Positions 2,483 to 26,878 of a stretch of 64,000 nt of DNA are shown here, one piece after another. Within the stretch, counting starts at the first letter, position 1. Each line of letters starts with the position of its first letter. A model generated the notes under the pieces. It was given only the letters and a program-made list of their open reading frames with translations, was not told where the DNA came from and did not search any database. The position numbers and the translations under genes were made by a program. The DNA is from an uncultured Elusimicrobia bacterium (lineage in GTDB: Bacteria; Elusimicrobiota; Elusimicrobia; UBA1565; UBA9628). The stretch lies in the NCBI GenBank assembly GCA_903830945.1, contig CAIKVT010000069.1, positions 1 to 64,000 on the forward strand, written 5' to 3'.

Positions 2483-2895
2483 AGACTCAGATCAAGTTGC
2501 AGATCCCGGCGGGCGCCGCGAACCCCGCCCCGCCCGTGGGCCCGGCATTAGGCCAGCACGGCGTCAACATCATGGACTTCTGCAAGCAGTTCAATGACCG
2601 CTCCCGCAGCATGGAAGCGGGTATGACCATCCCCGTGGTCATCACGGTGTACGAAGACCGATCCTTCTCCTTCATCACCAAGATGCCGCCGGTGGCCTCA
2701 CTTCTCAAACGCGCGGCCGGCCTGGCCAAGGCCTCTGGGGAGCCCAACCGCAATAAGGTAGGGAAGATCACTCTCAAGCAGGCCGAAGAGATCGCGACGC
2801 AGAAGATGCCGGACCTCAACACCAAGGACCTCAAGGGTGCCCTGCAGATGGTCAAGGGCACGGCGCGGTCCATGGGCATCGAGATCGCGGAGTAG
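2467..2895 (+). CDS. rplK: 50S ribosomal protein L11 (uL11)
   Basis: A 142-residue protein of normal length. The N-terminal domain carries the proline-rich stretch [22 protein letters not shown] that contacts translation factors and thiostrepton-type antibiotics. The C-terminal domain ([15 protein letters not shown], then [10 protein letters not shown]) binds the GTPase-centre 23S rRNA. AAGGAG at 2455-2460 precedes the ATG with good spacing. rplA follows after 57 nt. Confidence 0.97.
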
Positions 2896-2952
2896 TACCA
2901 GACGCAAGACCGAGCTCCGCCCAGCGGAGCGCCAACAGGTCAAGGAGGCGGT

Positions 2953-3636
2953 ATGGGAAAGCGAATCATAAATATCACCAAGGACGTTGATTTCACGAAA
3001 CAGTACACTCTTGACGATGCCGTGGCGCTTGTAAAAAAGTGCGCCACCGCCAAATTCGACGAGACGGTGGAGCTGCACGTGCGCCTGGGCGTCGACCCTA
3101 AGCAGGCCGACCAGCAGGTGCGCGGCACTGTAGGCTTGCCCCATGGTTTAGGAAAATCAAAAAAGGTCGCAGTCGTCACCCAAGGGGAGAAACAGAAGGA
3201 TGCCACGGCAGCCGGCGCGGACATCGTGGGCGGCGCAGAGCTCGTAGACCAGATATCCAAGGGGTTCCTGGATTTTGAAATCCTGGTGGCCACCCCGGAC
3301 ATGATGAAGGACCTCTCCAAGCTGGGAAAGGTCCTGGGGCCCAAGGGCCTCATGCCAAACCCCAAAAGCGGCACCGTGACCATGGATGTGGGCAAAACCG
3401 TCAAGGAACTCAAGGCCGGTCGGGTTGAATATAAGGTAGACGACTACGGCATCATACACGTCCCGGTAGGCAAGGCATCGTTTGAGCCCACGCGGCTCTC
3501 AGGCAACATCCAGGCCGTGATGGAAGTTATCATCAAGGCCAAGCCCGCCTCTTCTAAGGGCATCTACCTCATGAGCGTGACCCTGTCCTCGAGCATGGGG
3601 CCTGGAGTCCGACTCGACACGTCGCAAAAGTTCTAG
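2953..3636 (+). CDS. rplA: 50S ribosomal protein L1 (uL1)
   Basis: A 227-residue L1 protein, which forms the L1 stalk near the E site and usually represses its own operon by binding an rRNA-like site in the mRNA. Diagnostic segments are GTVGLPHGLGKSKKVAV, LGPKGLMPNPKSGTVT and the C-terminal block with SVTLSSSMGPGVRLD. AAGGAGG sits 5-11 nt before the ATG. The operon ends here; rplJ and rplL, its usual followers, are absent and a long hairpin and a convergent gene follow. Confidence 0.97.
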   Translation: MGKRIINITKDVDFTKQYTLDDAVALVKKCATAKFDETVELHVRLGVDPKQADQQVRGTVGLPHGLGKSKKVAVVTQGEKQKDATAAGADIVGGAELVDQISKGFLDFEILVATPDMMKDLSKLGKVLGPKGLMPNPKSGTVTMDVGKTVKELKAGRVEYKVDDYGIIHVPVGKASFEPTRLSGNIQAVMEVIIKAKPASSKGIYLMSVTLSSSMGPGVRLDTSQKF

Positions 3637-3654
3637 CGCACCACAAGTCGGATC

Positions 3655-3700
3655 AAGGACTACGGCCCGGACAGGGAACCCTGTCTGGGCCGTAGTCCTT
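3655..3700. terminator. Long perfect hairpin after rplA, possible terminator
   Basis: Positions 3655-3674 and 3681-3700 form a 20-bp inverted repeat with a single G-U pair and a 6-nt loop (GGAACC). It lies 18 nt after the rplA stop, between convergent operons. There is no T-run on either side, so it is not a textbook intrinsic terminator. It may be a transcription barrier, an RNA-processing site or an mRNA 3'-end stabiliser. Confidence 0.5.
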
Positions 3701-3772
3701 CCATCTTCCAATAGACCCAGTCAGCATCACTCCCGGATAGGTCTTAAAACGTTCGGCGGGATCGGCCTATGC

Positions 3773-14816: not shown

Positions 14817-15605
14817 CTATCGTGCCGGCTGAGCCGGACCCGACATCGACGTCTTCCCGTATTCCTTAAGCCCCTCGGTGAAGGACTGCGGCAGCCCCAG
14901 CGCCTGACCGGTGTCGGAAAGCAGTGCCCGCAACACTCCATCTTCAACGAGGAGGTCCGCAGACGCGGCCAGCAGCTCGCGCGGAGTCTCCTTGAGCGCC
15001 TCCTTAAAAAAAGCCTGCACCGCCGGATCGCGAGCATACTTGGCAGTCAACTCCGGAAAGCTCCTAGCCCCGGCAAGGCCGCGCAGAAATCTGACAGGGT
15101 CGCGGTCGACCATGTAGTCATCGTTGAGCTTCTTAAGGTCGGGCTTACTCATCCAGTCCTGACCGTACTGGTGGATGGCCGGATAGCGCTCGGTGTACTC
15201 GATAGCCAAAGCTTGGGCCTTGGCCTCGCTCCGGCGCACCGCCTCCGTAAAAACGGAGACGGCGGGCTGCGGATTGCCCGGGCGCGCTGCCTGAGGCGCA
15301 GCCCCAGATACGGGACGGGGATTCTCCCCTCCCGTTAGGGATGTCGCGCTCGGGACCGGCGCCTGGAGCGCGGCTCCGGCATGGATCATGTCGAGACTGG
15401 ATCGCGGGTCGGCCGAAGGGGACGGCGCGGGCTGAGGGCTCTGCCGGAGCGCTAGCGAGTCAAGGCCAAAATTCACGGTCACGGGCTTCTCCTTCTGGGA
15501 GAGCTGCCAGAGCATCACCCCAACAGCCGATCCGGCCACGGCCAAAGCGGCCAAAAGCGCCGCAGCCGCGGCCGTGCGTCTCGGGGGTCGCTGTCCTTCG
15601 TCCAT
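14817..15605 (-). CDS. Membrane-anchored protein of unknown function, partner of the giant gene
   Basis: A 262-residue protein with a short basic N-terminus, one membrane helix (about residues 12-34) and a Pro/Ala/Ser-rich linker to about residue 115. A predicted helical domain follows (EAVRRSEAKAQALAIEYTER to the end). The topology is probably N-in with the domain in the periplasm. It starts 8 nt after the giant gene, so the two are very likely cotranscribed and may act together. I do not recognise a family. The convergent pgl gene ends on the adjacent base. Confidence 0.75.
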   Translation of the reverse strand: MDEGQRPPRRTAAAAALLAALAVAGSAVGVMLWQLSQKEKPVTVNFGLDSLALRQSPQPAPSPSADPRSSLDMIHAGAALQAPVPSATSLTGGENPRPVSGAAPQAARPGNPQPAVSVFTEAVRRSEAKAQALAIEYTERYPAIHQYGQDWMSKPDLKKLNDDYMVDRDPVRFLRGLAGARSFPELTAKYARDPAVQAFFKEALKETPRELLAASADLLVEDGVLRALLSDTGQALGLPQSFTEGLKEYGKTSMSGPAQPAR

Positions 15606-15613
15606 AAAGCCCC

Positions 15614-18600
15614 TCAGTATACCGGAGGGATGATCTGCATGACCGCGTTGAGCTCCCCGTCCGGCAGCCGTGCGCCCCGTCCGTTGAGCTCGGCCAGCTT
15701 GGCGACGACCTCGGCGATGTCCTCGCTGCGCGAGGCGTCGATGCGCACGTAATGCTGACGTGAACCGTCTAGGGCCTTGACCTGTTCAGCCGCCGGGCCG
15801 ATACCAATGAAGGTGACGTCGATGCCGGCCTCGGCGCATTGAGCCAGGACTTGCGCCATCTCCGGGGTCGACGTCCACTGGCCGCCCGGGCCCTTGACGA
15901 TGGACTTCCCGTCGGCGCCGTCAGTGACGAGCAGCAGGCTCTTGACCTTGGCGCCGCGGGCTTGACGCGAGCCCATGAAATCCGAAAGCTTGGCGTTGAG
16001 CGCTCTGACGATGTCGGTTCCGCCTTCCCCGGCGGCATTAGCCATGTTCACGAGGCGATCAGCGTTCTCCTTCCGGCTTAAGCGCGCGTCCATGGCGACA
16101 TAAGTGTGCGGCGCGTCAGAGAAAGAGGCAAGGTCGTAGAAGAAGTGCTCAGGAGCGGCCTCGCGCAACTTCCAGAAGTTCTCCCCCACGGCGCCGATGG
16201 TATAGGCCAACTGCTGCTTGATGTCCCCCATGCTGCCGCTGAAGTCGAGCAAGACGGAGATGGCGGTCGTGCTCATCTTCTCCTGTTTCCTACGCTTGAC
16301 GAAAGGCTTAGGCTTGCGCTGGATCAAGGCCTGCGGGTCGATCTCCAAGCCTGAGCGCACCGGAATTTTCTCGATGCGCACGGCGTCGCGCAAGGCGCGC
16401 AGCATGCGGTCGAAGACGAACTGCGTGTCTCCTTTTCCACTAGAAAAAAGCGGCGCCAGCTCGTCGTTGAGCCGGGCATCTTGAACAAGCTCCTGGTCGA
16501 TCCCGTCGACAGCTGCCTGGATGCGCTGCGAGTCCTCGGCCGCACCGCCGCCGGAGTCAGAGCCGGCGCTGGCTTGGCCGCGGCTGGAGTGGGGAGGCTT
16601 GAGTCCCTGCTGCTTCATGGCCTGGCGCGTCCTTTCGGCCATACGCTGCTCGTTCTCTCTATAGGTCTTGGGGGACGGCAAGCCGTCATCGTAGCGCGGG
16701 ACGTGCGCATCATTAGCCAGAGGCAAGAGGTCCATGTTCATCGGGTCACCCCCGCCGCCCAGGTCCACGCGCATCCAGCCAAGGTTCGGCACGAGCACCT
16801 CCGCCCAGGCGTGGATCTCGGATTCGACGTAACGCGCCGGGATGCCGAGGCCCAGGGCCGTGCGCGCGAAAGCGAAGGCTCGATGGCGGCAGACGCCGCA
16901 CTTCGAAAGCATGATGTCGAGATAGCGCGAACCCCCATGCCCGACAATGCCGTCCTTTTTGAGCGAAAAATCTCGGAAGTATGCGGCGAGCGCATGCAGG
17001 ACGACACGATAATCGGTCTCGTCGTCCTTGAGCCCGATCTGGCCCAGGGCTTGCCGGACTTCCGCCGGGATCTGCGCCGGATAATGGAACGGCAGTCCCG
17101 CGGGCAAAGGACTCCCGAAAGAAACGGCCGGGACAGCGACGCGGTAGCGCAGCTCAACGCTAGCGGTCTGCCGTGCCCGAACGTAAAAGTTGTCCGCTGA
17201 GTCGCGCGCCAGCTCAAGGCCGGGATCGGTCGGCCGGCCGGCGGCGTCGAAAGCCGCCAGATCTATAAAGCGCATGCCCGGCCCCGTTGCGGGCAAGCCT
17301 TGCCACTGGGCGCCGACGCTCATCGCCACGCGCCCTGCGAAGAGGTCGTGCGTGGCCTTAAGCTCGCGCGCCAGAGCGTCCGCCTGGCCGGGAGACAGAC
17401 GCGGGACATCCTCGGCCGTCAGATTACCGAGGCGCGTCCATTCCTCGGAGGCCTCGTCGTAGACGTCGTAGGCGGAAAGCCGCGTGTACGGAAAAAGCTC
17501 GGGGATGAAGATGCCGCGCGCGGCCATGGCATCACCGCGCGGGCCATGGGGGGAAGAGTTCTCGTCGAAGGTCTCTTGCCCGTCTCTCATGAGGTCATCG
17601 GTGCCCTTGCGGCCTTCGGGCGCATGACCGGCCAACGCCGGCGCCGGCGTTACGACGGAGACCGCGCCTGCCGCGGCGGCGGGCTGCTCCCAGACGCCAT
17701 AGAACGAGGCCACGACCTTTTCGATCTCCTGAGACGAGGCCAGTCCCACCCACGCGGTGATGGCATGGTCCAGCAGACGCGGGTCGATAGTCTGACGCCC
17801 CGAGTAGCGCGTCGGGTTGAAAGTCATGACGATCTGCACGCCCTCGCCGACCATGAACGCCGGCTCCTCGGGAAAGATCGGGTGGACCCAGCGCTCCCCG
17901 CGCAGCAGCGGCTCGAGTGTCCAGAGAACCCAGGGCGCCAAATTGGCCTCGTCGATGTCCATGATGACCCGGCCTTCACGCAGCAGGCGATAAAAATCCT
18001 TGACGCGCTTACGGAAGGCCCCTGAGGCTTCTTGCTCGAAGTCGATCGTGAGGTCGCTGGCCTCGCTGCCGCCGTGGACCTGATATTTATAGAACCGCCG
18101 GCCAGTCAGCCGGGCCCAGAGCGCGCAGATGCTCGTCTTGACTGCCCCGGTCTCGCCAGCGAAAACCGTAGCCATCCCCAAGTTGTCGGCGCGCGCCAGT
18201 ATGCCCAGCGCGCGCTCGATTTGAGGACTCAGGAAGACCCGGCTGTCGCGCGCGGCCGGCCGCAGTCCTTCGGCTTGCATGCTCTCCCGCACGGGCACCC
18301 CGCCGGCGGCCACAAGCCGACCGTCGAGGGTGCCATCGTCAGTGGCCAGCGCAACAGGCGCATCCGCGACGCGGAATCCGAGCACAGCCGCCAACGCCTG
18401 CTCAAAGCGCTGCGCATCGGGGATCTCGCCGTCGGACGCGTCCCCGGGCAACCTTGCCGCGACCAAGCGCCGGGCCTCTCTCGCGAAGGTCTCGGTAGCC
18501 AAGCTCCGGTAGTCTTCGACGAGAGAGCGATGGGCTTTTGGCTCCGCCCAAGGATCTCGGCGCGGGTCATAGCCTTCCGCCGCCACGCGGTCGAACAACG

Positions 18601-21600
18601 CGGCCCAGCGCGGGTCTTCATTGCGCGCCTGCACGACGGCCTGCGCCAAGGCGAAGAAGATGCCCGCATGATATTGGTACGCGCCGCGATTGACCCAGCG
18701 ACGTTCGGCATCGAAACGGGACAAAGCCGCGCGCAGTTCGGCCGTCCAGTGGGCATCAAGAGTGTCGAGGGCGTAGCGCGAACGCAGCACGCGTTCGAAC
18801 TCCGAGGGTTGGCCCGCGACCTCGGGCAGGACCAGGTCCCGCGGGATTCCGATCTTGACCCAGCGGCTAAAGAACGCAGCGGAGAAATCGCGCGTGGAAT
18901 CGGCCGGCATCTCGGCGAGCAGGTGCAGATGGGGCGGCCGGTAGAGCCTCGTGGCTCGCCCGTCGATATCCTCAAGATCGATGAAGCCGTCCTCCAAAAG
19001 CCCGTTGAGGGCCGTGCGGATCTCCTCCTTCCACTGGTCCACGTTGCGCAACCACAGCACGACCGGTTCGGACATTTTTCCGTCGCGGCCTAGCTGCTCG
19101 AGCTCGGCGCGAGTCAGCAAGTAGCGCGTCAGCTTCCCGCGGACCTGCCGCGAGCGCGCAGCACCCGCCGGACGCTCGCCCAGATGAGGCAGCCAGCCGC
19201 CCAGGAGCTCCAGCTCGCCTTGCTCGGGCGCGGCATCGACAGGCTCCAAGCGTGCGCCCATGGCCTCCGCCGCCGCCCGCGCCATATCCGAGGTCCGCGC
19301 CCCGGCCTCGGCGATATAGAGTACGGGCTCGCCTTGACTCAACAGGTCCTGCGTCAAGCCTGCCGCCCACGCTTCGCGCTCCGTGGCGGCCCGCGGAAAA
19401 CGCGCGGCCAGTTCCTCGCGCAAGCCATCCGCGCCGATGGGCCGCCCAAGGACCTTTTCAATCCGCTCTCGCACGTAGGCGCGCTCCTGCAAATGTGAGA
19501 ACATCGCTTCATAAACCGCGCGCAACGCGCGCTCGAAAGCTTTGTCCGCATCGCCGCGGGGATCCTCGCGCAATGCGCGCCGCAGATGAGCAGCCACGCG
19601 GCGCACTTCCCGCTTAGAGAGATAGTAGCGCTCTTTATTGTCCCTGCCGATCTGTCTGCCGATGGCGGGCTTCAACAGATGATGCAGAGCGGCCGTGGCC
19701 TTGCCCCAGCGCTCCACGTCCCGCGGATCGGCCGGAGCGCGCTGGCCCAGAAAATGCTTAAAGAGCCGCTCGAGCGTGGCAGGCTCGTCGTCCTCCGGCA
19801 CTTCGATCGTATGGACGTTGGCGGTGACCTCGCTCTTTGGCTGCAGACGCCCAGGCGTGTCCTCGGGCCTGTTGTTGGTGACCACGAGGCCGAAGTCCTT
19901 ATGTACCGGCAGACGCAGCGCGGATCCTGGGAACTCCTGAAGGACGATCTCACGGTCGCCGTTGGCCAATCCCGAGAACCAACTCAACAGTTCGCGGCCG
20001 CGCTCACCGATGGCGCCCTCGTCCAGCACGAAGATTCCGCCGTTGACGATCATGTCGAGCAACGGCAGCTTAAAACGCTGCCGGCCCTGGGCATCTCGGA
20101 CCGGGCGCGCCGTCAGCACGAGCCGGCCGTCGGGGTCCTCGCGGAAAGCGCCCAGCAGATCCGAAAGCTCGCGCTCGCCGTTCATCTGAAACACGAAGCG
20201 TGGCAGGCCCAGCAGCAGGCCCAGCTCGCGCGCGATCACGGTCTTCCCGGCTCCGGGGCTGCCGATGAAGTTCACGGCGCGGCCGCGGGACCAATCCTCA
20301 AGAGCCAAGCCTTCCAAGCGCTCCAAGGTTTCGCCCTCCATCAGGAAATCGTCCTCAGAGAGCGGCCGCAGGGCTTCGGCATAGGGGTCCTTGAGGTCGG
20401 CAAGCAACAGCTCGGCGAGGTCCCGGCGCCGCCCGGAGACGCTGGCCAGCTCCCGCGGCCGTTGGCCGAGCTGTTCCAGAGGCCGCACAAGTTCGTGACG
20501 GGTCGCCAGCCAACGGCCCTTAAAATTGAGCCAGACGCGGCCGTCTTCGTCCGCCGCGAAGTAGAAAGGCTTGCCTCCGTAGCGCGGCTTAAACGAAAAA
20601 GAAGCCGACTCCATGACGGCGTGTACGGCCTCGGACTCGGCTACGACAGCAACACGACCTGCCAGCTGACTGCGAGACACGACACGGCCATCCATGAGCA
20701 CTACTGCGGCGTCGTCCTGGACGATGAACTTTTGAAGAGAATAAGCTTGCAGACCGCGAACGCCGCCGACCAGCAGCATCCGGCCGTCGGGTGTGAACGC
20801 CACGGACCGGATAAACCCACCATGCGCAATCGCGGAACCGGCCTGGACGTACTGCTTCTGGCGAGGGTCGAAGGAGAAAACACGGGCCGCTTCCTTGTTG
20901 CCCGTGGCCAGGGTGAGGCCGTCGGACGTGAGGTCCACAGACTCGACCAGAGCGTCATGCTTGATCGCGGAGCCGACATGAATGTACTTGTTTTGACTGG
21001 AGTCCGAACGGAAGACTAAAACGGCGTGATAGCTGCCCAGAGCGAAAGTCTGACCGTCAGGCGTGATTGCCGAGGAATGGGCCGAGGCGTCGCAATCAAG
21101 CGCGGGGCCGACCTGAACGTATCTATCTTGTTCCAAGCGGACGACGCGGACTGTCGGGGAATTTCTGCCCATCAGCAAGGTCCGTCCATCAGGCGTGATC
21201 GCCAAGGAACCGCCGTCGAGAGCGGGGCCGACCTGGACATATTGATTTTGTTCCAAGCGATAGACGCGAGTTTTATTATCTTCACTGCTGATGGCGATGG
21301 TGCGACCGTCGGGCGTTACTGCCACATCGACATAACCATTGTTGGCGAACGCGGGACCGGCCTGGATGAACTGGCCTTGGCCCAAGTGAAAGATGCGGAT
21401 ATTTTTATCGTCGCTGTTCGTGACAAAGGTCTGCCCGTCGGATGTGATCCTTAAGAACAGAACCCTGCCCGGATGATCGAACGCGGAGCTGATCTGGATG
21501 TACCTATTTTGGCCTGGGCCCAGACGGAAAATGAGGATTTTATCATCAAGAGTTGAGATGATGATGGTGCGACCGTCGGGCGTGATCGCAGTGAGGCGGA

Positions 21601-24600
21601 CCTGAGACACAGGGAAATCCTGAGGCAGCAGGGCCAATGCCTGGCCGACGTCGAACTGACGCAATTCAGCGGCGGGCTTCTCTTGCCAGGGCAGGCGCGC
21701 GGCCTGGGTCTCGAGCACATGGCGCAGCGCGTCCAGGGCCTTAGCGCGGTCAGCGGGCGTCACGGCGATGGCAAAGTCGGCCTGAGCCTGCGACATAGCT
21801 TGGGCCCCAGGCCGATCGGGCTCGGTCAAGGAAACGATGGGGCCTGCCAGTTGGCTGCGCGGCATAGCGCGGCCATCCATGAGCACAGCAGTGGCGTCGT
21901 CCTGGATGATGAACTCTTTTAGCGCATAGATTTGCAGGCCACGATCGCCGCCGACCAGCAGCATCCTGCCGTCGGACGCGAGCGCCAGGGAAGTGATCGC
22001 ATCGCCGTATTCGAACGCGGCCCCGGCCTGAACGTACTTGTTTTGGCTGGAGTCCAAGTGGAATAGGCGGACTTTTTTATCAGGACTGCCTGTGGCCAAA
22101 GTGTGGCCGTCGGGCGCAATCGCCACGAAAGCGACCACGCCGCCGTCGAACGCGGGGCCGACCTGGATCGATTGATTCTGCTCTATGCGGAAGACACGGA
22201 CTTGATAATCATCGCTGAGCGTAACGAGTGTGTGGCCGTCGGGTGTGATCGCCAGGGACCTGACCGCAGCACCAAGATCGAGCCCCGGGCCGACCTGGAT
22301 CGCCTGGTTTTGCTCTATACGGAAGACGCGGAATTTCCCATCTTTGCTGCCCGTGACGAGAGTGTGGCCGTCAGCGGTGAGCGCCTCGGAAATGACCCAG
22401 CGGTCATGATCCAGCGCGGGGCCCACCTGGACGTACTGGGTGGGCTCCAAGCGGAAGACACGGGCTTTATTATCCTCGCTGCCCGTGACGAAGGTTTGAC
22501 CATCAGGCGCAATCGCCATTGACCTGACCACACCGTCATGATCGAGCGGAGGTCCGAACTGGACGTACTGGTTTTTCTCCAAACGGAAGACGCGGGCTTT
22601 CTTATCATAGCTTCCCACGATGAGGGTGCGGCCGTCGGCTGTAAGCGCCATGGCAATGACTAGGAATTCGTGGTCGAGTGCTGGGCCGACCTGCACATAC
22701 TGGTCTTGGCTAAGGGCCAAGTGGAAGACGCGGACTTTCCGATCAGAGCTGCCAATAATGAGGGTTTGACCGTCAGGCGTGATCGCCGCGCAGATGACAC
22801 CAGCTGCCGGGAAGTCCTGGGGCAGCAGGGCCAAAGCCCGGCCGATGTCGAGCGGCCGGAGATCGGCGGCAGACTTCTCTTGCCAGGGCAAGCGCGCGGC
22901 CTGGGCCTCGAGAACGTGGCGCAGCGCATCCAAAGCCTTGGCGCGGTCAGCGGGCGTCGCGACGATGGCGAAGTCAGCCCGGGCCTGTTCAAGGGCGGGC
23001 AACTCTCCCGCCTCAACGCCGGCGGGCCGGCGCCGGCCCAACCGCAAGGAGCCGTAGCCTCGGGTCACCAGTTCGAGCCCCTGGGACAGCGCCAAGGCTT
23101 GCCGGCGCTGCGGCGAAGCCCAGGAGGCGAGGTTGCCCAGGGCCGCCGTCTCCAGCCGGCGGACGAGCTCTGGGACGCCCAGGCCGGCATCGACGGCCGC
23201 GAGCGTGGCCACGGTTGCGGCCCGGAGAAACCAGAGGAAAGAGGACTGCGACAGCAGCCCCGCGGGCGCGTTGGGCTCGGCCTGGCGCAGGCGCGGATAG
23301 AGGCCGGCGGCCCAACGGCCTAGGAATCCGGCCAACTGCTCGGGTAAGGCCGACAAGGCTTGGCCCAGCTCTTGGGCCACAGAGCGCTCGGCCCAGACAT
23401 CGTCTTCGCCCTCAGCCAGTTCCACAAAGCGCGAGCGCTCCGCGGGCGACCAGGAGAGCGTCGAGTCCTGCCGGCTGACGAAAAGGACGCGGGCGTTGGT
23501 GGGCATGGACAACGGCTGCCGGGCGCCCTTGGGGTAGAGCAGTCCATCCTGCAGGAACTCATTGATGGCCACGATCTGCTCGGGCTTGATATTGTGGGCG
23601 TTATCGAAGACATAGACGATGGTCTTGTCCGGAACGGCGTTGGCGCGCTCGATCATCCGGGCAAAGATGCCCGGCCCGAAGGTCAAGCCCGTCCCACTCT
23701 CCGCCGGCACGAGGCCGCCTTCCATCTGGAAACGGTCGGTCTCCTCGGTAGCTTGGATCAACGACAATTCGATCGCGGGGTCTTGCGCGAGACGGCGCAG
23801 CGCCTCGCGCGCGTCGGCCTGCGCCGGCAGGCGCAGGTGAGCGGGACGAGCCTTGACCAGCAGCTGGTCAGCCAAAGCCGCCTGGGCCTGCAGCGGCGGC
23901 CATGACCCGAGCGCCGCGGCCAACGCTTGGCGCAGCGCCTCTATCTGCTTGGGCTGCGTCAGCCAGCCGCCCAAGTGCACGCCAGCCGCCTCTCCCAGGG
24001 CCGCCTCCTCGCTGCGGCCCGCGGCCAGGCCCGCCAGGACGTCTTCCGACATGCGCCGCAGTTCGCGCATCGACAAAACCCGGCCGCCGAGGTCTTTCCA
24101 GGACTGCGTCAGCGCCGCCGCCTCCCAGTAAGCCTCGGCCAATCGGCGCGCCAACCGCTGCCGCAAGCCCTGATCCAAGAGGCCCCGGCCCAGCACGCGT
24201 CCGCCGGAGGTCCAGTCGTGCTTGAGGAACATCTCCGCGTCGCGCCGCAGCGTGTCGATCTCTCTGCGCTTGAGCGCGGCGCTGGCATCCGCCGTGACTA
24301 ATGGCTCAACGCTCAAGATCGGGACTCGCTCCTTAAGGACATCCGACAGGGCCCCGCGCGCCGCGTAGTCACCTTCGGGGTTGGTGTCCACGACGATCAG
24401 CGTCTTGGGATGTACGCGGATCGTAGGCACGGGAAGCCCTTCGGGAGTGGGGACCTCGGTCAGCCGGATCGTGCGGTAGCCCTGGGCGTCGGGCGCGGCC
24501 TCGACGATCTGCTGCAGCCACCAGCCCAGAGACGCTTTCTCGTTATGGTCGAGCAATGTATTGAGCTCACTGAGTGCCGCCACGCCGCCCTGCTCGAGCC

Positions 24601-26878
24601 GCTGCTTCAACGGCGTATCGCCGCGGAAATGGTAGCGACCCGCTTCGTCCTGCTCGAATCCCCCGATCCAATCGGACAGCTGCGTGTCCATGCTGACCGG
24701 GTTGGAGAAGAATGGTCGCCCGAGCAGGCGCGCATAACCGCGCGCCGCGAACGTCTTGCCAAGACCCGTCGGCCCTTCCAGGCGCAGCAACGGCCCCGCG
24801 CGCGCCTGGACCTGAGCCATCATGGACAGCATGCGCACGGTCTGAAAATCGAGAATGAGCCCAGTCTTCAAGTAGATCTCGTCATGGAGGGTCTGCGGTG
24901 TGACCCCGAAGAACTCATCGGACAATGAGATCTCGGCGCCGGGCAGAGATAGGACAGGCCGGCCGCGATCTTGACGCAGGCGGACCGAATCTAGATAATT
25001 TCCAGCGTCCACGCCGCGCGGCCATTGCAAGCCGGGCGGCGCCTGGTAAGAAGGATCGCTCGGCAGCTCACGGACCGCGACACGGTCATAAAACGAATCA
25101 TCCTCCAGGCCGACGCCCTTGCGGATCGTGAAGAAGAACTGCAGGTTATCCGGAAGAAAGATAAGGCCCAGGTCCGGGTGCGTGATCTCACGGTCTTGCA
25201 GCGCCGACTGCAGAAGAGTGCGCACGCCGGGCTCAAGGGCTTCGACGTTCTTGATCACGAGCAGCGATCGACGCGCGGGGCGGCCGCTGAGCCGAGCCTC
25301 CTCGCTCTCGGCTTGCGCCGCGCGGATTTGACGCGTAAGCTCGCCCAAGCCGAAGACGAGCCGGCCGTCTTCAAGGGGAACCTCGTGGCCCAGCAGTTGC
25401 CGGTCCTCGATGAAAGGATGGCTGTAGATGACATCCAGAGAAGCGCCGGAAGCACGCGCCTGACGGCGCAGGACAGCCATAAACTCGACATCGCTGCCGG
25501 GCGCCTCCTGGAACAGGGCTGGATCATTGGTCAGCAGGGCTCGCGCCACGCGCCGCTCCATCGCCGATTCGCCGACCGGAATGCCGAGCAAGCGCGACTC
25601 GAGGGGTTCGCTTTGCAGTTGCCTCCACACGGGCTCGCCGATGAACTCGGCGAATCGGCTCATGAGGCGGCTCGCCTCGTTAGGTTTACCCTTCTCGAAT
25701 AGGTTCCAACCGGAGCCGGACGCCAAGACGTCGCCGTAGAAGCTTTGCGCCGCCAGGGCCAACGCCTCGGCCAGCGGGGCCGCGCTGCCCTGGGCGCGCC
25801 GCCGCGCCGTCAGGCTCAAAACGGCTTTTGAGAAACGCTCCTGGTCCCGCTGGGAAAAGAAAGCCTGAGCCAGCTCTGGGTGAGCAGCCAGCAGATCGCG
25901 CTTGAAGGCGGTCTGGGCTTGCACGAGGCGATTGAATTGGGCCAGGGTGAGACCTAATATCTGGAGCGACTGGCGGGTCTCGGGAGGCAGCGACGCGTCC
26001 GTCTCGGCCAGCACAGCCGCCCGCGCGGAGGACGACCATCGGCCATGAAGCCATCTTCCGATGAGATCAGTCAGCAGCGCTTTGATGTCCGCTACGGCTT
26101 GAGCGATGATCCCAACCGCTCTTGATACGGCGGCTCCCGCGGGAGCGTCCTGCGACAGGAGCCGAGGGGCCGGGATTCCCGACATCCCGCTGCCGCTAGG
26201 CTCAGACGCGGCCGGAACTGCCGGCGCTTTTTGCAGCCGCCACCGGAAAGGGCCGGCGGAGCTTCCCACGCCGCCCGCCGGCTGGACGGCCAGATCATCG
26301 TTTTTATCGCTCCATGCGGCCCTGGCCCGTTCGATAGGCTCAGCCAGGATGGCCTGGACCGCGGACGCAACGGCATCGCGGCTGCGCTCAAGATCTTGCC
26401 GACGACCTGGAACCAGGGCCACGAGAACAGGGAAGTCCCTGAATTCCTCTTGCGTTTGCGAAAGCGACTGGCGCGCCGTCGCGGCAGGCATGGACGAAAA
26501 AGCAGCCGTTCGGGCGACAAGGCTCGCGGCGTAGCTCTCAGCCGAGTCTTGAATCAGCGCGGCTTGCCGCTGGACCGACCAACCCGGAACTGCCACGGCC
26601 TGCGGATCCAAGCCCGTGCGCCCCATGACGCGGACGAAACCTTCCATCTGCTCCGGCGTGCTGAGGCCGAAAGGCTCCAGGAACTGGATCGTCGCCGGCG
26701 ACGGAAAGGTTGCGAAAAAAGTACGCCAGGCTTGCACCCTACTGGAAGCGCCTTGGCCGGGCAGACTGGCGGCATAAACAATGGGGCCGGAAGTCCCGGG
26801 GGCAGCGGCCACCAGACTCAGCGCCAAAGACAGCGCGAGCAACTTCTTAAGCTGAAAGAGAACGGCCCGCATGGTCAT
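15614..26878 (-). CDS. Giant secreted midasin-like protein: six AAA modules, two WD propellers, transglutaminase and VWA
   Basis: A protein of about 3754 residues. The start ATG (26878) is chosen because it begins a signal peptide (residues 1 to about 36, ending VYA-AS); the frame is open further upstream but overlaps the next gene. Order: helical region 40-450; AAA-0 without P-loop (about 450-630, Walker B-like LLVIKNVEAL near 542); AAA-1 with Walker A GPTGLGKT 702-709; AAA-2 without P-loop (YVFDNAHN, D1092); two seven-bladed WD-like propellers (about 1360-1650 and 1759-2053); AAA-3 with GSPGAGKT 2206-2213 and LDE 2285-2287; AAA-4 without P-loop (about 2500-2690); AAA-5 with altered Walker A GETGAVKT 2908-2915 and intact D2976-E2977. 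Then a transglutaminase-like domain with C3330, H3356 and D3372, and a C-terminal VWA domain with MIDAS D3545-x-S-x-S, T3621 and D3653. The modules look like AAA_5 (dynein/midasin/MoxR) domains. Bacterial MoxR ATPases normally pair with separate VWA and transglutaminase proteins. Function unknown. Confidence 0.93.
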   Translation of the reverse strand: MTMRAVLFQLKKLLALSLALSLVAAAPGTSGPIVYAASLPGQGASSRVQAWRTFFATFPSPATIQFLEPFGLSTPEQMEGFVRVMGRTGLDPQAVAVPGWSVQRQAALIQDSAESYAASLVARTAAFSSMPAATARQSLSQTQEEFRDFPVLVALVPGRRQDLERSRDAVASAVQAILAEPIERARAAWSDKNDDLAVQPAGGVGSSAGPFRWRLQKAPAVPAASEPSGSGMSGIPAPRLLSQDAPAGAAVSRAVGIIAQAVADIKALLTDLIGRWLHGRWSSSARAAVLAETDASLPPETRQSLQILGLTLAQFNRLVQAQTAFKRDLLAAHPELAQAFFSQRDQERFSKAVLSLTARRRAQGSAAPLAEALALAAQSFYGDVLASGSGWNLFEKGKPNEASRLMSRFAEFIGEPVWRQLQSEPLESRLLGIPVGESAMERRVARALLTNDPALFQEAPGSDVEFMAVLRRQARASGASLDVIYSHPFIEDRQLLGHEVPLEDGRLVFGLGELTRQIRAAQAESEEARLSGRPARRSLLVIKNVEALEPGVRTLLQSALQDREITHPDLGLIFLPDNLQFFFTIRKGVGLEDDSFYDRVAVRELPSDPSYQAPPGLQWPRGVDAGNYLDSVRLRQDRGRPVLSLPGAEISLSDEFFGVTPQTLHDEIYLKTGLILDFQTVRMLSMMAQVQARAGPLLRLEGPTGLGKTFAARGYARLLGRPFFSNPVSMDTQLSDWIGGFEQDEAGRYHFRGDTPLKQRLEQGGVAALSELNTLLDHNEKASLGWWLQQIVEAAPDAQGYRTIRLTEVPTPEGLPVPTIRVHPKTLIVVDTNPEGDYAARGALSDVLKERVPILSVEPLVTADASAALKRREIDTLRRDAEMFLKHDWTSGGRVLGRGLLDQGLRQRLARRLAEAYWEAAALTQSWKDLGGRVLSMRELRRMSEDVLAGLAAGRSEEAALGEAAGVHLGGWLTQPKQIEALRQALAAALGSWPPLQAQAALADQLLVKARPAHLRLPAQADAREALRRLAQDPAIELSLIQATEETDRFQMEGGLVPAESGTGLTFGPGIFARMIERANAVPDKTIVYVFDNAHNIKPEQIVAINEFLQDGLLYPKGARQPLSMPTNARVLFVSRQDSTLSWSPAERSRFVELAEGEDDVWAERSVAQELGQALSALPEQLAGFLGRWAAGLYPRLRQAEPNAPAGLLSQSSFLWFLRAATVATLAAVDAGLGVPELVRRLETAALGNLASWASPQRRQALALSQGLELVTRGYGSLRLGRRRPAGVEAGELPALEQARADFAIVATPADRAKALDALRHVLEAQAARLPWQEKSAADLRPLDIGRALALLPQDFPAAGVICAAITPDGQTLIIGSSDRKVRVFHLALSQDQYVQVGPALDHEFLVIAMALTADGRTLIVGSYDKKARVFRLEKNQYVQFGPPLDHDGVVRSMAIAPDGQTFVTGSEDNKARVFRLEPTQYVQVGPALDHDRWVISEALTADGHTLVTGSKDGKFRVFRIEQNQAIQVGPGLDLGAAVRSLAITPDGHTLVTLSDDYQVRVFRIEQNQSIQVGPAFDGGVVAFVAIAPDGHTLATGSPDKKVRLFHLDSSQNKYVQAGAAFEYGDAITSLALASDGRMLLVGGDRGLQIYALKEFIIQDDATAVLMDGRAMPRSQLAGPIVSLTEPDRPGAQAMSQAQADFAIAVTPADRAKALDALRHVLETQAARLPWQEKPAAELRQFDVGQALALLPQDFPVSQVRLTAITPDGRTIIISTLDDKILIFRLGPGQNRYIQISSAFDHPGRVLFLRITSDGQTFVTNSDDKNIRIFHLGQGQFIQAGPAFANNGYVDVAVTPDGRTIAISSEDNKTRVYRLEQNQYVQVGPALDGGSLAITPDGRTLLMGRNSPTVRVVRLEQDRYVQVGPALDCDASAHSSAITPDGQTFALGSYHAVLVFRSDSSQNKYIHVGSAIKHDALVESVDLTSDGLTLATGNKEAARVFSFDPRQKQYVQAGSAIAHGGFIRSVAFTPDGRMLLVGGVRGLQAYSLQKFIVQDDAAVVLMDGRVVSRSQLAGRVAVVAESEAVHAVMESASFSFKPRYGGKPFYFAADEDGRVWLNFKGRWLATRHELVRPLEQLGQRPRELASVSGRRRDLAELLLADLKDPYAEALRPLSEDDFLMEGETLERLEGLALEDWSRGRAVNFIGSPGAGKTVIARELGLLLGLPRFVFQMNGERELSDLLGAFREDPDGRLVLTARPVRDAQGRQRFKLPLLDMIVNGGIFVLDEGAIGERGRELLSWFSGLANGDREIVLQEFPGSALRLPVHKDFGLVVTNNRPEDTPGRLQPKSEVTANVHTIEVPEDDEPATLERLFKHFLGQRAPADPRDVERWGKATAALHHLLKPAIGRQIGRDNKERYYLSKREVRRVAAHLRRALREDPRGDADKAFERALRAVYEAMFSHLQERAYVRERIEKVLGRPIGADGLREELAARFPRAATEREAWAAGLTQDLLSQGEPVLYIAEAGARTSDMARAAAEAMGARLEPVDAAPEQGELELLGGWLPHLGERPAGAARSRQVRGKLTRYLLTRAELEQLGRDGKMSEPVVLWLRNVDQWKEEIRTALNGLLEDGFIDLEDIDGRATRLYRPPHLHLLAEMPADSTRDFSAAFFSRWVKIGIPRDLVLPEVAGQPSEFERVLRSRYALDTLDAHWTAELRAALSRFDAERRWVNRGAYQYHAGIFFALAQAVVQARNEDPRWAALFDRVAAEGYDPRRDPWAEPKAHRSLVEDYRSLATETFAREARRLVAARLPGDASDGEIPDAQRFEQALAAVLGFRVADAPVALATDDGTLDGRLVAAGGVPVRESMQAEGLRPAARDSRVFLSPQIERALGILARADNLGMATVFAGETGAVKTSICALWARLTGRRFYKYQVHGGSEASDLTIDFEQEASGAFRKRVKDFYRLLREGRVIMDIDEANLAPWVLWTLEPLLRGERWVHPIFPEEPAFMVGEGVQIVMTFNPTRYSGRQTIDPRLLDHAITAWVGLASSQEIEKVVASFYGVWEQPAAAAGAVSVVTPAPALAGHAPEGRKGTDDLMRDGQETFDENSSPHGPRGDAMAARGIFIPELFPYTRLSAYDVYDEASEEWTRLGNLTAEDVPRLSPGQADALARELKATHDLFAGRVAMSVGAQWQGLPATGPGMRFIDLAAFDAAGRPTDPGLELARDSADNFYVRARQTASVELRYRVAVPAVSFGSPLPAGLPFHYPAQIPAEVRQALGQIGLKDDETDYRVVLHALAAYFRDFSLKKDGIVGHGGSRYLDIMLSKCGVCRHRAFAFARTALGLGIPARYVESEIHAWAEVLVPNLGWMRVDLGGGGDPMNMDLLPLANDAHVPRYDDGLPSPKTYRENEQRMAERTRQAMKQQGLKPPHSSRGQASAGSDSGGGAAEDSQRIQAAVDGIDQELVQDARLNDELAPLFSSGKGDTQFVFDRMLRALRDAVRIEKIPVRSGLEIDPQALIQRKPKPFVKRRKQEKMSTTAISVLLDFSGSMGDIKQQLAYTIGAVGENFWKLREAAPEHFFYDLASFSDAPHTYVAMDARLSRKENADRLVNMANAAGEGGTDIVRALNAKLSDFMGSRQARGAKVKSLLLVTDGADGKSIVKGPGGQWTSTPEMAQVLAQCAEAGIDVTFIGIGPAAEQVKALDGSRQHYVRIDASRSEDIAEVVAKLAELNGRGARLPDGELNAVMQIIPPVY
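20630..21790 (-). repeat. Second copy of duplicated helix-propeller unit in the giant gene
   Basis: Copy 2 starts at QAQADFAIAVTPADRAKALD (residue 1697) and runs through seven propeller blades of the form xxxTPDGRTxxxGSxDxKxRVFRL to a closing IVQDDAAVVLMDGR block. It aligns end to end with copy 1 at an offset of 1197 nt (399 codons). The retained blade-by-blade similarity indicates an in-frame tandem duplication. Confidence 0.85.
21791..22987 (-). repeat. First copy of duplicated helix-propeller unit in the giant gene
   Basis: Copy 1 starts at QARADFAIVATPADRAKALD (residue 1298), has about 60 residues of helix ending ALLPQDFP, then seven blades, then a closing IIQDDATAVLMDGR block. The helical cap and closing block are nearly identical to those of copy 2, so the whole 399-residue unit was duplicated, not just blades. 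Confidence 0.85.

What the first reader, a model, noticed from the sequence alone, without database searches (positions are those of the whole stretch)
15614..26878. Giant midasin-like protein: six AAA modules, transglutaminase and VWA in one chain
Seen: six segments with the AAA_5 layout (P-loop region, L-x-G-x lid, Walker B-like strand, sensor-1 strand), then a transglutaminase-like C3330-H3356-D3372 and a VWA with full MIDAS (D3545-x-S-x-S, T3621, D3653). Known: eukaryotic midasin (Rea1) has six AAA modules in one chain and a C-terminal MIDAS. Bacterial MoxR ATPases are separate proteins encoded beside VWA and TgpA-like transglutaminase proteins. Inference: this is a single-chain bacterial counterpart in which ring ATPase, metal-dependent adhesion domain and transglutaminase-like enzyme were fused. 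I know of no described system with this composition.
Basis: partly seen in the sequence, partly recalled or inferred. Interest (0 to 1): 0.95.

Follow-up and report, generated by a model that had tools for sequence, protein, structure and literature searches.

The report
Bacterial one-chain six-module AAA ring
One giant gene in an uncultured Elusimicrobiota bacterium encodes six ring-motor (AAA) modules plus a substrate-gripping VWA domain in a single protein, as in eukaryotic midasin, but the six modules are three copies of an 'arginine-finger half + ATP-binding half' pair, so bacteria appear to have built such a one-piece motor by their own route.

Summary
Window 15614-26878 is one intact ORF on the MINUS strand (3754 aa, ATG 26878). 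All six AAA modules are real: Pfam sees only M1, M3 and M5, but AlphaFold models of both half-chains (pLDDT 82 and 80.5) match dynein motors across the modules. The TG triad and VWA MIDAS are exactly where stated. Intact single-ORF homologues (4552, 5723, 6163 aa) rule out assembly fusion. The conserved core is six AAA + C-terminal VWA; propellers and TG vary. The family is rare: 7 of 341 Elusimicrobiota genomes.

New: modules form two classes, {M0,M2,M4} (no P-loop, arginine finger) and {M1,M3,M5} (P-loop, no arginine finger), by profiles and tree. The chain is three tandem copies of an inactive-active pair. G074a lost M3's Walker motifs together with M4's arginine. M0's invariant arginine has no P-loop module before it, predicting M5-M0 ring closure. 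Among solved structures the AAA modules are closest to midasin in sequence, but not collinear with it: probably an independently built relative, not an orthologue. Function is inferred: a VWA-guided remodelling motor.

The parts
15614..26878 (-). the giant gene, 3754 aa, ATG start at 26878, stop codon at 15614-15616
   Evidence: homologues
26768..26878 (-). signal-peptide-like N-terminus, residues 1-37 (seen in all four complete N-termini)
   Evidence: hydropathy and n/h/c layout; no dedicated predictor available
25562..26767 (-). N-terminal helical region, residues 38-439; 300-400 is the conserved part and may act as a lid for M5 (weak)
   Evidence: alignment; hhalign prob 17 to M1 lid
25061..25543 (-). 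AAA module M0 (residues 446-606), no P-loop, arginine finger
   Evidence: AF2 model, Foldseek, profile class
25082..25084 (-). R599, putative arginine finger of M0, present in 8 of 8 homologues
24299..24862 (-). AAA module M1 (residues 673-860), ATP-binding class
   Evidence: Pfam AAA_5
24752..24775 (-). M1 Walker A GPTGLGKT (702-709), 8 of 8
23408..23878 (-). AAA module M2 (residues 1001-1157), no P-loop, arginine finger R1150
21914..22810 (-). WD40 propeller 1 (residues 1357-1655), 7 blades
   Evidence: Pfam; blade motifs
20744..21613 (-). WD40 propeller 2 (residues 1756-2045), 7 blades; linker+propeller unit 53% identical to unit 1
19787..20350 (-). AAA module M3 (residues 2177-2364), ATP-binding class, Walker A 2206-2213 GSPGAGKT, Walker B DE
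18836..19372 (-). AAA module M4 (residues 2503-2681), no P-loop, arginine finger R2672
17735..18244 (-). AAA module M5 (residues 2879-3048), P-loop variant GETGAVKT, Walker B DIDEAN; no lid follows
   Evidence: Pfam AAA_5
16763..16993 (-). transglutaminase-like core (residues 3296-3372; C3330-H3356-D3372)
   Evidence: Pfam; conservation
15770..16261 (-). VWA domain with MIDAS (residues 3540-3703; D3545, S3547, S3549, T3621, D3653)
   Evidence: Pfam

Best explanation
It is a single-chain AAA machine. Six AAA modules of the midasin/dynein type close into one ring. The ring is made of three tandem copies of a two-module unit: a module without a P-loop that supplies an arginine finger, and a module that binds ATP. 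Each of the three ATP sites sits where an ATP-binding module meets the next arginine-finger module (M1-M2, M3-M4, and M5-M0 across the ring closure). ATP turnover drives shape changes; the C-terminal VWA domain holds the client through its MIDAS metal site and presents it to the ring. In this protein a transglutaminase-like cysteine enzyme just before the VWA, and two WD40 propellers between M2 and M3, add client cutting or modification and docking. Shown: domain content, fold of all modules, two-class alternation, conservation of motifs. Inferred: ring closure, three working sites, VWA-ring docking, remodelling as the job, role of TG and propellers.
For: Single intact ORF here and in G020, G072, G325 with conserved order. 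AF2 of M0-M2 pLDDT 82/pTM 0.76 and M3-M5 80.5/0.81; Foldseek best 50 all dynein motors, best E 4e-21 and 1e-30, TM 0.5-0.6 of the whole three-module query, i.e. modules placed roughly as in a ring arc. Profile vs PDB: midasin E 2.7e-67, dynein/NorQ about 1e-6. Two classes by hhalign: within-class prob 98-99, E 6e-14 to 2e-21; between-class prob 0.4-86, E no better than 5e-6. Tree: {M1,M3,M5} UFboot 97, {M0,M2,M4} split 99, both 97 with Walker and arginine-finger columns deleted; M1, M3, M4 and M5 each a clade across both subfamilies. Arginine finger 8/8 in M0, 8/8 in M2, 6/8 in M4, absent at that place in M3 and M5; G074a lost M3 Walker A and B and M4's arginine together. In Rea1 the arginine of module i+1 serves site i (PMC6286127). 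VWA docking on the ring is described for Rea1 and NorQD (PMC13036017).
Against: Only half-rings were modelled, without access to coordinates; closure is deduced from motif logic. The P-loop of M5 lacks the usual third glycine and M1's Walker B lacks its aspartate, so perhaps only M3 hydrolyses normally. The window protein starts with a signal-like peptide and has no later TM segment, which would put an ATPase outside the cytosol. The TG Asp is lost in G325a, and TG and propellers are missing in relatives. No expression or client data; gene neighbours are unrelated housekeeping genes.
Confidence: 0.64

Rival explanations
1. The chain shares a six-module ancestor with eukaryotic midasin (vertical descent or gene transfer), so it is a true midasin orthologue that later degenerated in alternate modules.
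For: Midasin is the best solved relative by a wide margin; same core composition; M5, like Rea1 AAA6, seems to lack its lid. Rea1 too has an even/odd pattern (helical H2 inserts in AAA2, AAA4, AAA6).
Against: Modules are related as three copies of a pair, and the best module-to-module matches (M5 to Rea1 AAA3, M3 to AAA5) are not collinear. VWA profile is CoxE/CobT-like and does not find midasin. No long helical linker or D/E-rich region.
Confidence: 0.13
2. It is a one-protein version of the vWA-MoxR ternary conflict (immunity) systems: the ring and VWA sense or thread an invader signal, and the TG-like cysteine enzyme is the effector. (Rival on function; compatible with the ring architecture.)
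For: Those systems combine a MoxR-clade AAA, a VWA, beta-propellers and sometimes a transglutaminase-like peptidase, and some have an odd P-loop GXXXTAKS similar to M5's GETGAVKT (PMC7159879). Patchy occurrence (7 of 341 genomes).
Against: No PADLOC match, no defence neighbours, no VMAP/iSTAND/FtsH partner seen; an orphan gene among housekeeping genes.
Confidence: 0.22
3. It is an exported giant surface protein, like other giants of Elusimicrobiota/Omnitrophota, in which the AAA modules are a structural scaffold without ATP turnover and VWA/WD40 act as adhesins.
For: Signal-like N-terminus in all four complete homologues, TM segments in several; giants in this phylum have been read as surface or predation proteins (PMC12057145).
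Against: P-loops, Walker B, sensor-1 Asn and arginine fingers are conserved in step, hard to explain without nucleotide use.
Confidence: 0.15
4. It is an artefact: separate genes joined by assembly, or a readthrough pseudogene.
For: MAG-derived sequence.
Against: Same order in independent genomes with single ORFs of 4552, 5723 and 6163 aa; motif conservation.
Confidence: 0.01

Closest known systems
Midasin / Rea1 / Mdn1 (eukaryotic pre-60S remodelling ATPase)
   Same: Six AAA modules with H2 inserts in one chain, C-terminal MIDAS VWA; best solved relative of both module classes
   Different: Alternating pair-triplicate architecture, three instead of four complete ATP sites, no ~1700-aa linker or D/E-rich tail, extra WD40 and TG domains, CoxE/CobT-like VWA, bacterial
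Dynein heavy chain motor (also RNF213)
   Same: Single-chain AAA ring; Foldseek best match of both half-chains
   Different: No stalk, buttress or linker seen; carries VWA and TG; sequence closer to midasin
VWA8 (mitochondrial)
   Same: Several AAA_5 domains and a C-terminal MIDAS VWA in one chain (PMC8517341)
   Different: Half the size, three predicted AAA_5; could not be compared by sequence here
Bacterial MoxR-clade AAA + VWA pairs (NorQ-NorD, CbbQ-CbbO, RavA-ViaA, CoxD-CoxE)
   Same: AAA with H2 insert working with a MIDAS VWA partner; NorQ is the closest bacterial solved structure
   Different: Homohexamers with the VWA on a separate protein; here all six subunits and the VWA are one chain, with two unlike subunit types
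vWA-MoxR ternary conflict systems (Kaur et al. 2020, PMC7159879)
   Same: AAA + VWA + propeller + occasional TG-like peptidase; P-loop variant lacking the last Gly
   Different: Multi-gene systems; their third components are absent here
Alternating hetero-hexamers such as Pex1/Pex6 (general knowledge, not checked here)
   Same: Three pairs of unlike AAA subunits around a ring
   Different: Separate chains; here covalently joined in tandem

Membership tests
Midasin | six tandem AAA modules in one chain | tested here: met
Midasin | C-terminal VWA with MIDAS | tested here: met
Midasin | AAA modules closest in sequence to midasin | tested here: met
   (among solved structures only; the control, an own-genome MoxR, prefers MoxR 2r44)
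Midasin | module-by-module orthology to AAA1-AAA6 | tested here: not met
   non-collinear matches and pair-triplication
Midasin | ~1700-aa helical linker and D/E-rich segment between ring and MIDAS | tested here: not met
   only ~490 aa between M5 and VWA, occupied largely by the TG domain
Midasin | last AAA lacks its small domain, replaced by the N-terminal domain | tested here: inconclusive
   no lid after M5; NTD lid-likeness weak
Midasin | acts on pre-60S assembly factors | not testable with these tools
   eukaryotic clients
MoxR proper (AAA_3 / RavA) | Pfam AAA_3 and match to MoxR 2r44 or RavA | tested here: not met
   AAA_5 in 9 of 9, AAA_3 in 1 of 9 members; 2r44 and RavA absent at E<0.01
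vWA-MoxR ternary conflict systems | VMAP, iSTAND, FtsH or propeller third component encoded nearby | tested here: not met
   neighbours; PADLOC
Transglutaminase-like superfamily | Cys-His-Asp triad in a Transglut_core domain | tested here: met
   (triad in 4 of 5; Asp lost in G325a)
Dynein | stalk/buttress and linker on the AAA ring | tested here: not met
   no such insert in the models' secondary structure

The most novel reading that the evidence does not exclude
Bacteria evolved, independently of eukaryotes, a one-polypeptide AAA ring by triplicating an inactive-active pair, giving a covalent trimer of dimers with three composite ATP sites and a fused MIDAS tail: a second origin of midasin/dynein-type single-chain motors, later armed with propellers and a cysteine enzyme.
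Probability: 0.58. Interest if true: 0.88.

Novelty: new variant of a known kind. Interest (0 to 1): 0.8.

Why it matters
Single-chain six-module AAA rings are known from eukaryotes (dynein, midasin, RNF213); a 2023 paper discussing VWA8 states that in archaea and bacteria the AAA and VWA parts sit on different proteins (PMC10743472). A bacterial family with the midasin composition and a clear internal duplication history gives a natural comparison for how one-piece ring motors arise, and a built-in test of how many ATP sites such a motor needs. It also gives an identity to one class of the giant proteins for which Elusimicrobiota are noted (PMC11573180).

Tried and rejected
Pfam on slices gives nothing for M0, M2, M4: insufficient, replaced by models and module profiles. 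NTD as the missing M5 lid: only prob 17 by hhalign, though the true lid pair M2-M3 scores about the same, so left open. Operon partner: the 262-aa gene directly downstream (14817-15605) has no homologue in the other carriers. Collinear homology with Rea1: rejected. Odd/even mapping of Rea1 modules onto the two classes: no signal. Defence family: no PADLOC hit. Viral origin: a viral-contig scan found none. The genome-contig scan found only the G020 genome, but it used two exact peptides and so reaches close relatives only; absence outside Elusimicrobiota is not shown. Weak search hits in ORFs of about 800 and 415 aa in relatives are probably Lon/Clp-type general P-loop similarity (judged from length, not scanned).

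Full report
WHAT IS THERE. A promoter-like site lies at 26965-26936, though the number of such sites is not above chance. GC content is even through the gene and like its neighbours. The order along the chain is: signal-like segment (1-37); helical N-terminal region (38-439); AAA M0 (446-606), M1 (673-860), M2 (1001-1157); two helical-linker-plus-WD40 units (about 1295-1690 and 1695-2079, 53% identical, seven blades each); AAA M3 (2177-2364), M4 (2503-2681), M5 (2879-3048); TG-like domain (core 3296-3372); Gly/Ser-rich linker; VWA (3540-3703). The propellers were overlooked.

IS IT ONE GENE. A homologue in another genus of the same family (G020; contig JAHFCE010000005.1, 'Elusimicrobia bacterium') is one ORF of 4552 aa with four propeller units, 45-62% identical. 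Further members are single ORFs of 5723 aa (G072), 6163 aa (G325a) and at least 5111 aa (G325b); G075, G073 and G074 give partial ones. Assembly fusion is therefore excluded. The family is patchy: by full-length similarity only 2 of 44 genomes in the family and 7 of 341 in the phylum. In G074 the M2 and M3 modules follow each other directly, and G075 and G325b have neither propellers nor a detectable TG domain, while six AAA modules and a VWA remain. The conserved core is thus six AAA + VWA; WD40 and TG are additions. Gene neighbours are housekeeping genes (pentose-phosphate genes by eye, a pseudouridine synthase and RmuC by Pfam), and the gene directly downstream is not shared by the other carriers.

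ARE ALL SIX MODULES AAA. Pfam detects AAA_5 in M1, M3 and M5 only. AF2 models of M0-M2 and M3-M5 from 8 and 9 homologues have pLDDT 82 and 80.5, pTM 0.76 and 0.81, with the AAA strand-helix alternation and an H2 beta-hairpin in each module. Foldseek's best 50 PDB matches for both are dynein motors, with TM about 0.5-0.6 over the whole three-module query, so neighbouring modules are placed roughly as in a ring. A joint profile of M0, M2, M4 finds midasin (summed E 2.3e-23, best single stretch 0.003) and then dynein.

THE TWO CLASSES. All-against-all hhalign of module profiles gives E 6e-14 to 9e-18 within {M0,M2,M4}, 1e-19 to 2e-21 within {M1,M3,M5}, and no better than 5e-6 between. A tree of 47 module sequences with two MoxR proteins of the same genome recovers {M1,M3,M5} (UFboot 97) and the split of {M0,M2,M4} (99); [quoted passage not shown] So shared loss of motifs does not drive the grouping. 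M1, M3, M4 and M5 are each a clade spanning both subfamilies, so the six-module chain predates their split. The simplest history is a two-module unit copied to three.

ATP SITES. Arginine-finger position: M0 8/8, M2 8/8, M4 6/8; not conserved in M1, absent in M3 and M5. Walker A: M1 8/8, M3 6/7, M5 a G..G..K[ST] variant in 8/9, with Walker B DEAN or DETN throughout. M1 lacks the Walker B Asp but keeps Glu-x-Asn. In Rea1 the next module's arginine completes each site (PMC6286127); by this rule M1 is served by R1150, M3 by R2672, and M5 can only be served by R599 of M0 if the ring closes. G074a lost M3's Walker A and B and M4's arginine together, as expected if they form one site (a single case).

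RELATION TO KNOWN FAMILIES. The M3-M5 profile finds midasin at 2.7e-67 (best single module 3e-15), dynein and NorQ near 1e-6, and does not reach MoxR 2r44 or RavA. The control, an ordinary MoxR from the same genome, prefers 2r44 (358 bits) over midasin (48 bits). So the modules belong with the midasin/dynein/NorQ side of the MoxR clade (for the clade see PMC7159879). Module matches are not collinear with Rea1, and the VWA resembles CoxE/CobT rather than midasin. I conclude: relative in kind, not shown to be an orthologue. The comparison is limited to solved structures; VWA8 could not be compared.

HOW IT PROBABLY WORKS. Known AAA-VWA machines dock the VWA on the ring and use it to hold the client (Rea1, NorQD: PMC13036017). 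By analogy this chain remodels a client held at the MIDAS, using up to three ATP sites, and may cleave or cross-link it with the TG-like domain (nearest solved relative peptide N-glycanase, E 0.006). This is inference. The conflict-system reading is the main functional rival (PMC7159879). The conserved signal-like N-terminus is unexplained: several relatives have extra TM segments that could return the ring to the cytosol, the window protein has none.

Noticed in passing
window 26768-26878 (-) and N-termini of G020, G072, G325a: A signal-peptide-like segment precedes an ATP-dependent ring protein in every complete family member; topology unexplained.
   Followed up: partly
L008 (G005 contig C11, about 21889-22053): A 2419-aa ORF in another species of the same genus carries diverged copies of the same helical-linker + propeller cassette; no AAA module was seen in the part read, suggesting a cassette that moves between giants.
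   Followed up: partly
L053 (G325 contig C12, downstream of the 6163-aa gene): A second giant ORF (at least 2454 aa, several TM segments) runs convergently next to the G325 homologue; G325 also has a second family member (5111 aa, C27).
   Followed up: no
L059 (G074 contig C251): A family member without propellers carries ankyrin repeats after the TG domain.
   Followed up: no
window 14817-15605 (-): 262-aa gene with an N-terminal membrane-like segment directly downstream of the giant (8-base gap); three further paralogous places in the same genome, no convincing match in other carriers.
   Followed up: yes
L084 1357-3265: The same genome also has an ordinary MoxR followed by a DUF58-like gene, so the giant is additional to the standard system.
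   Followed up: yes
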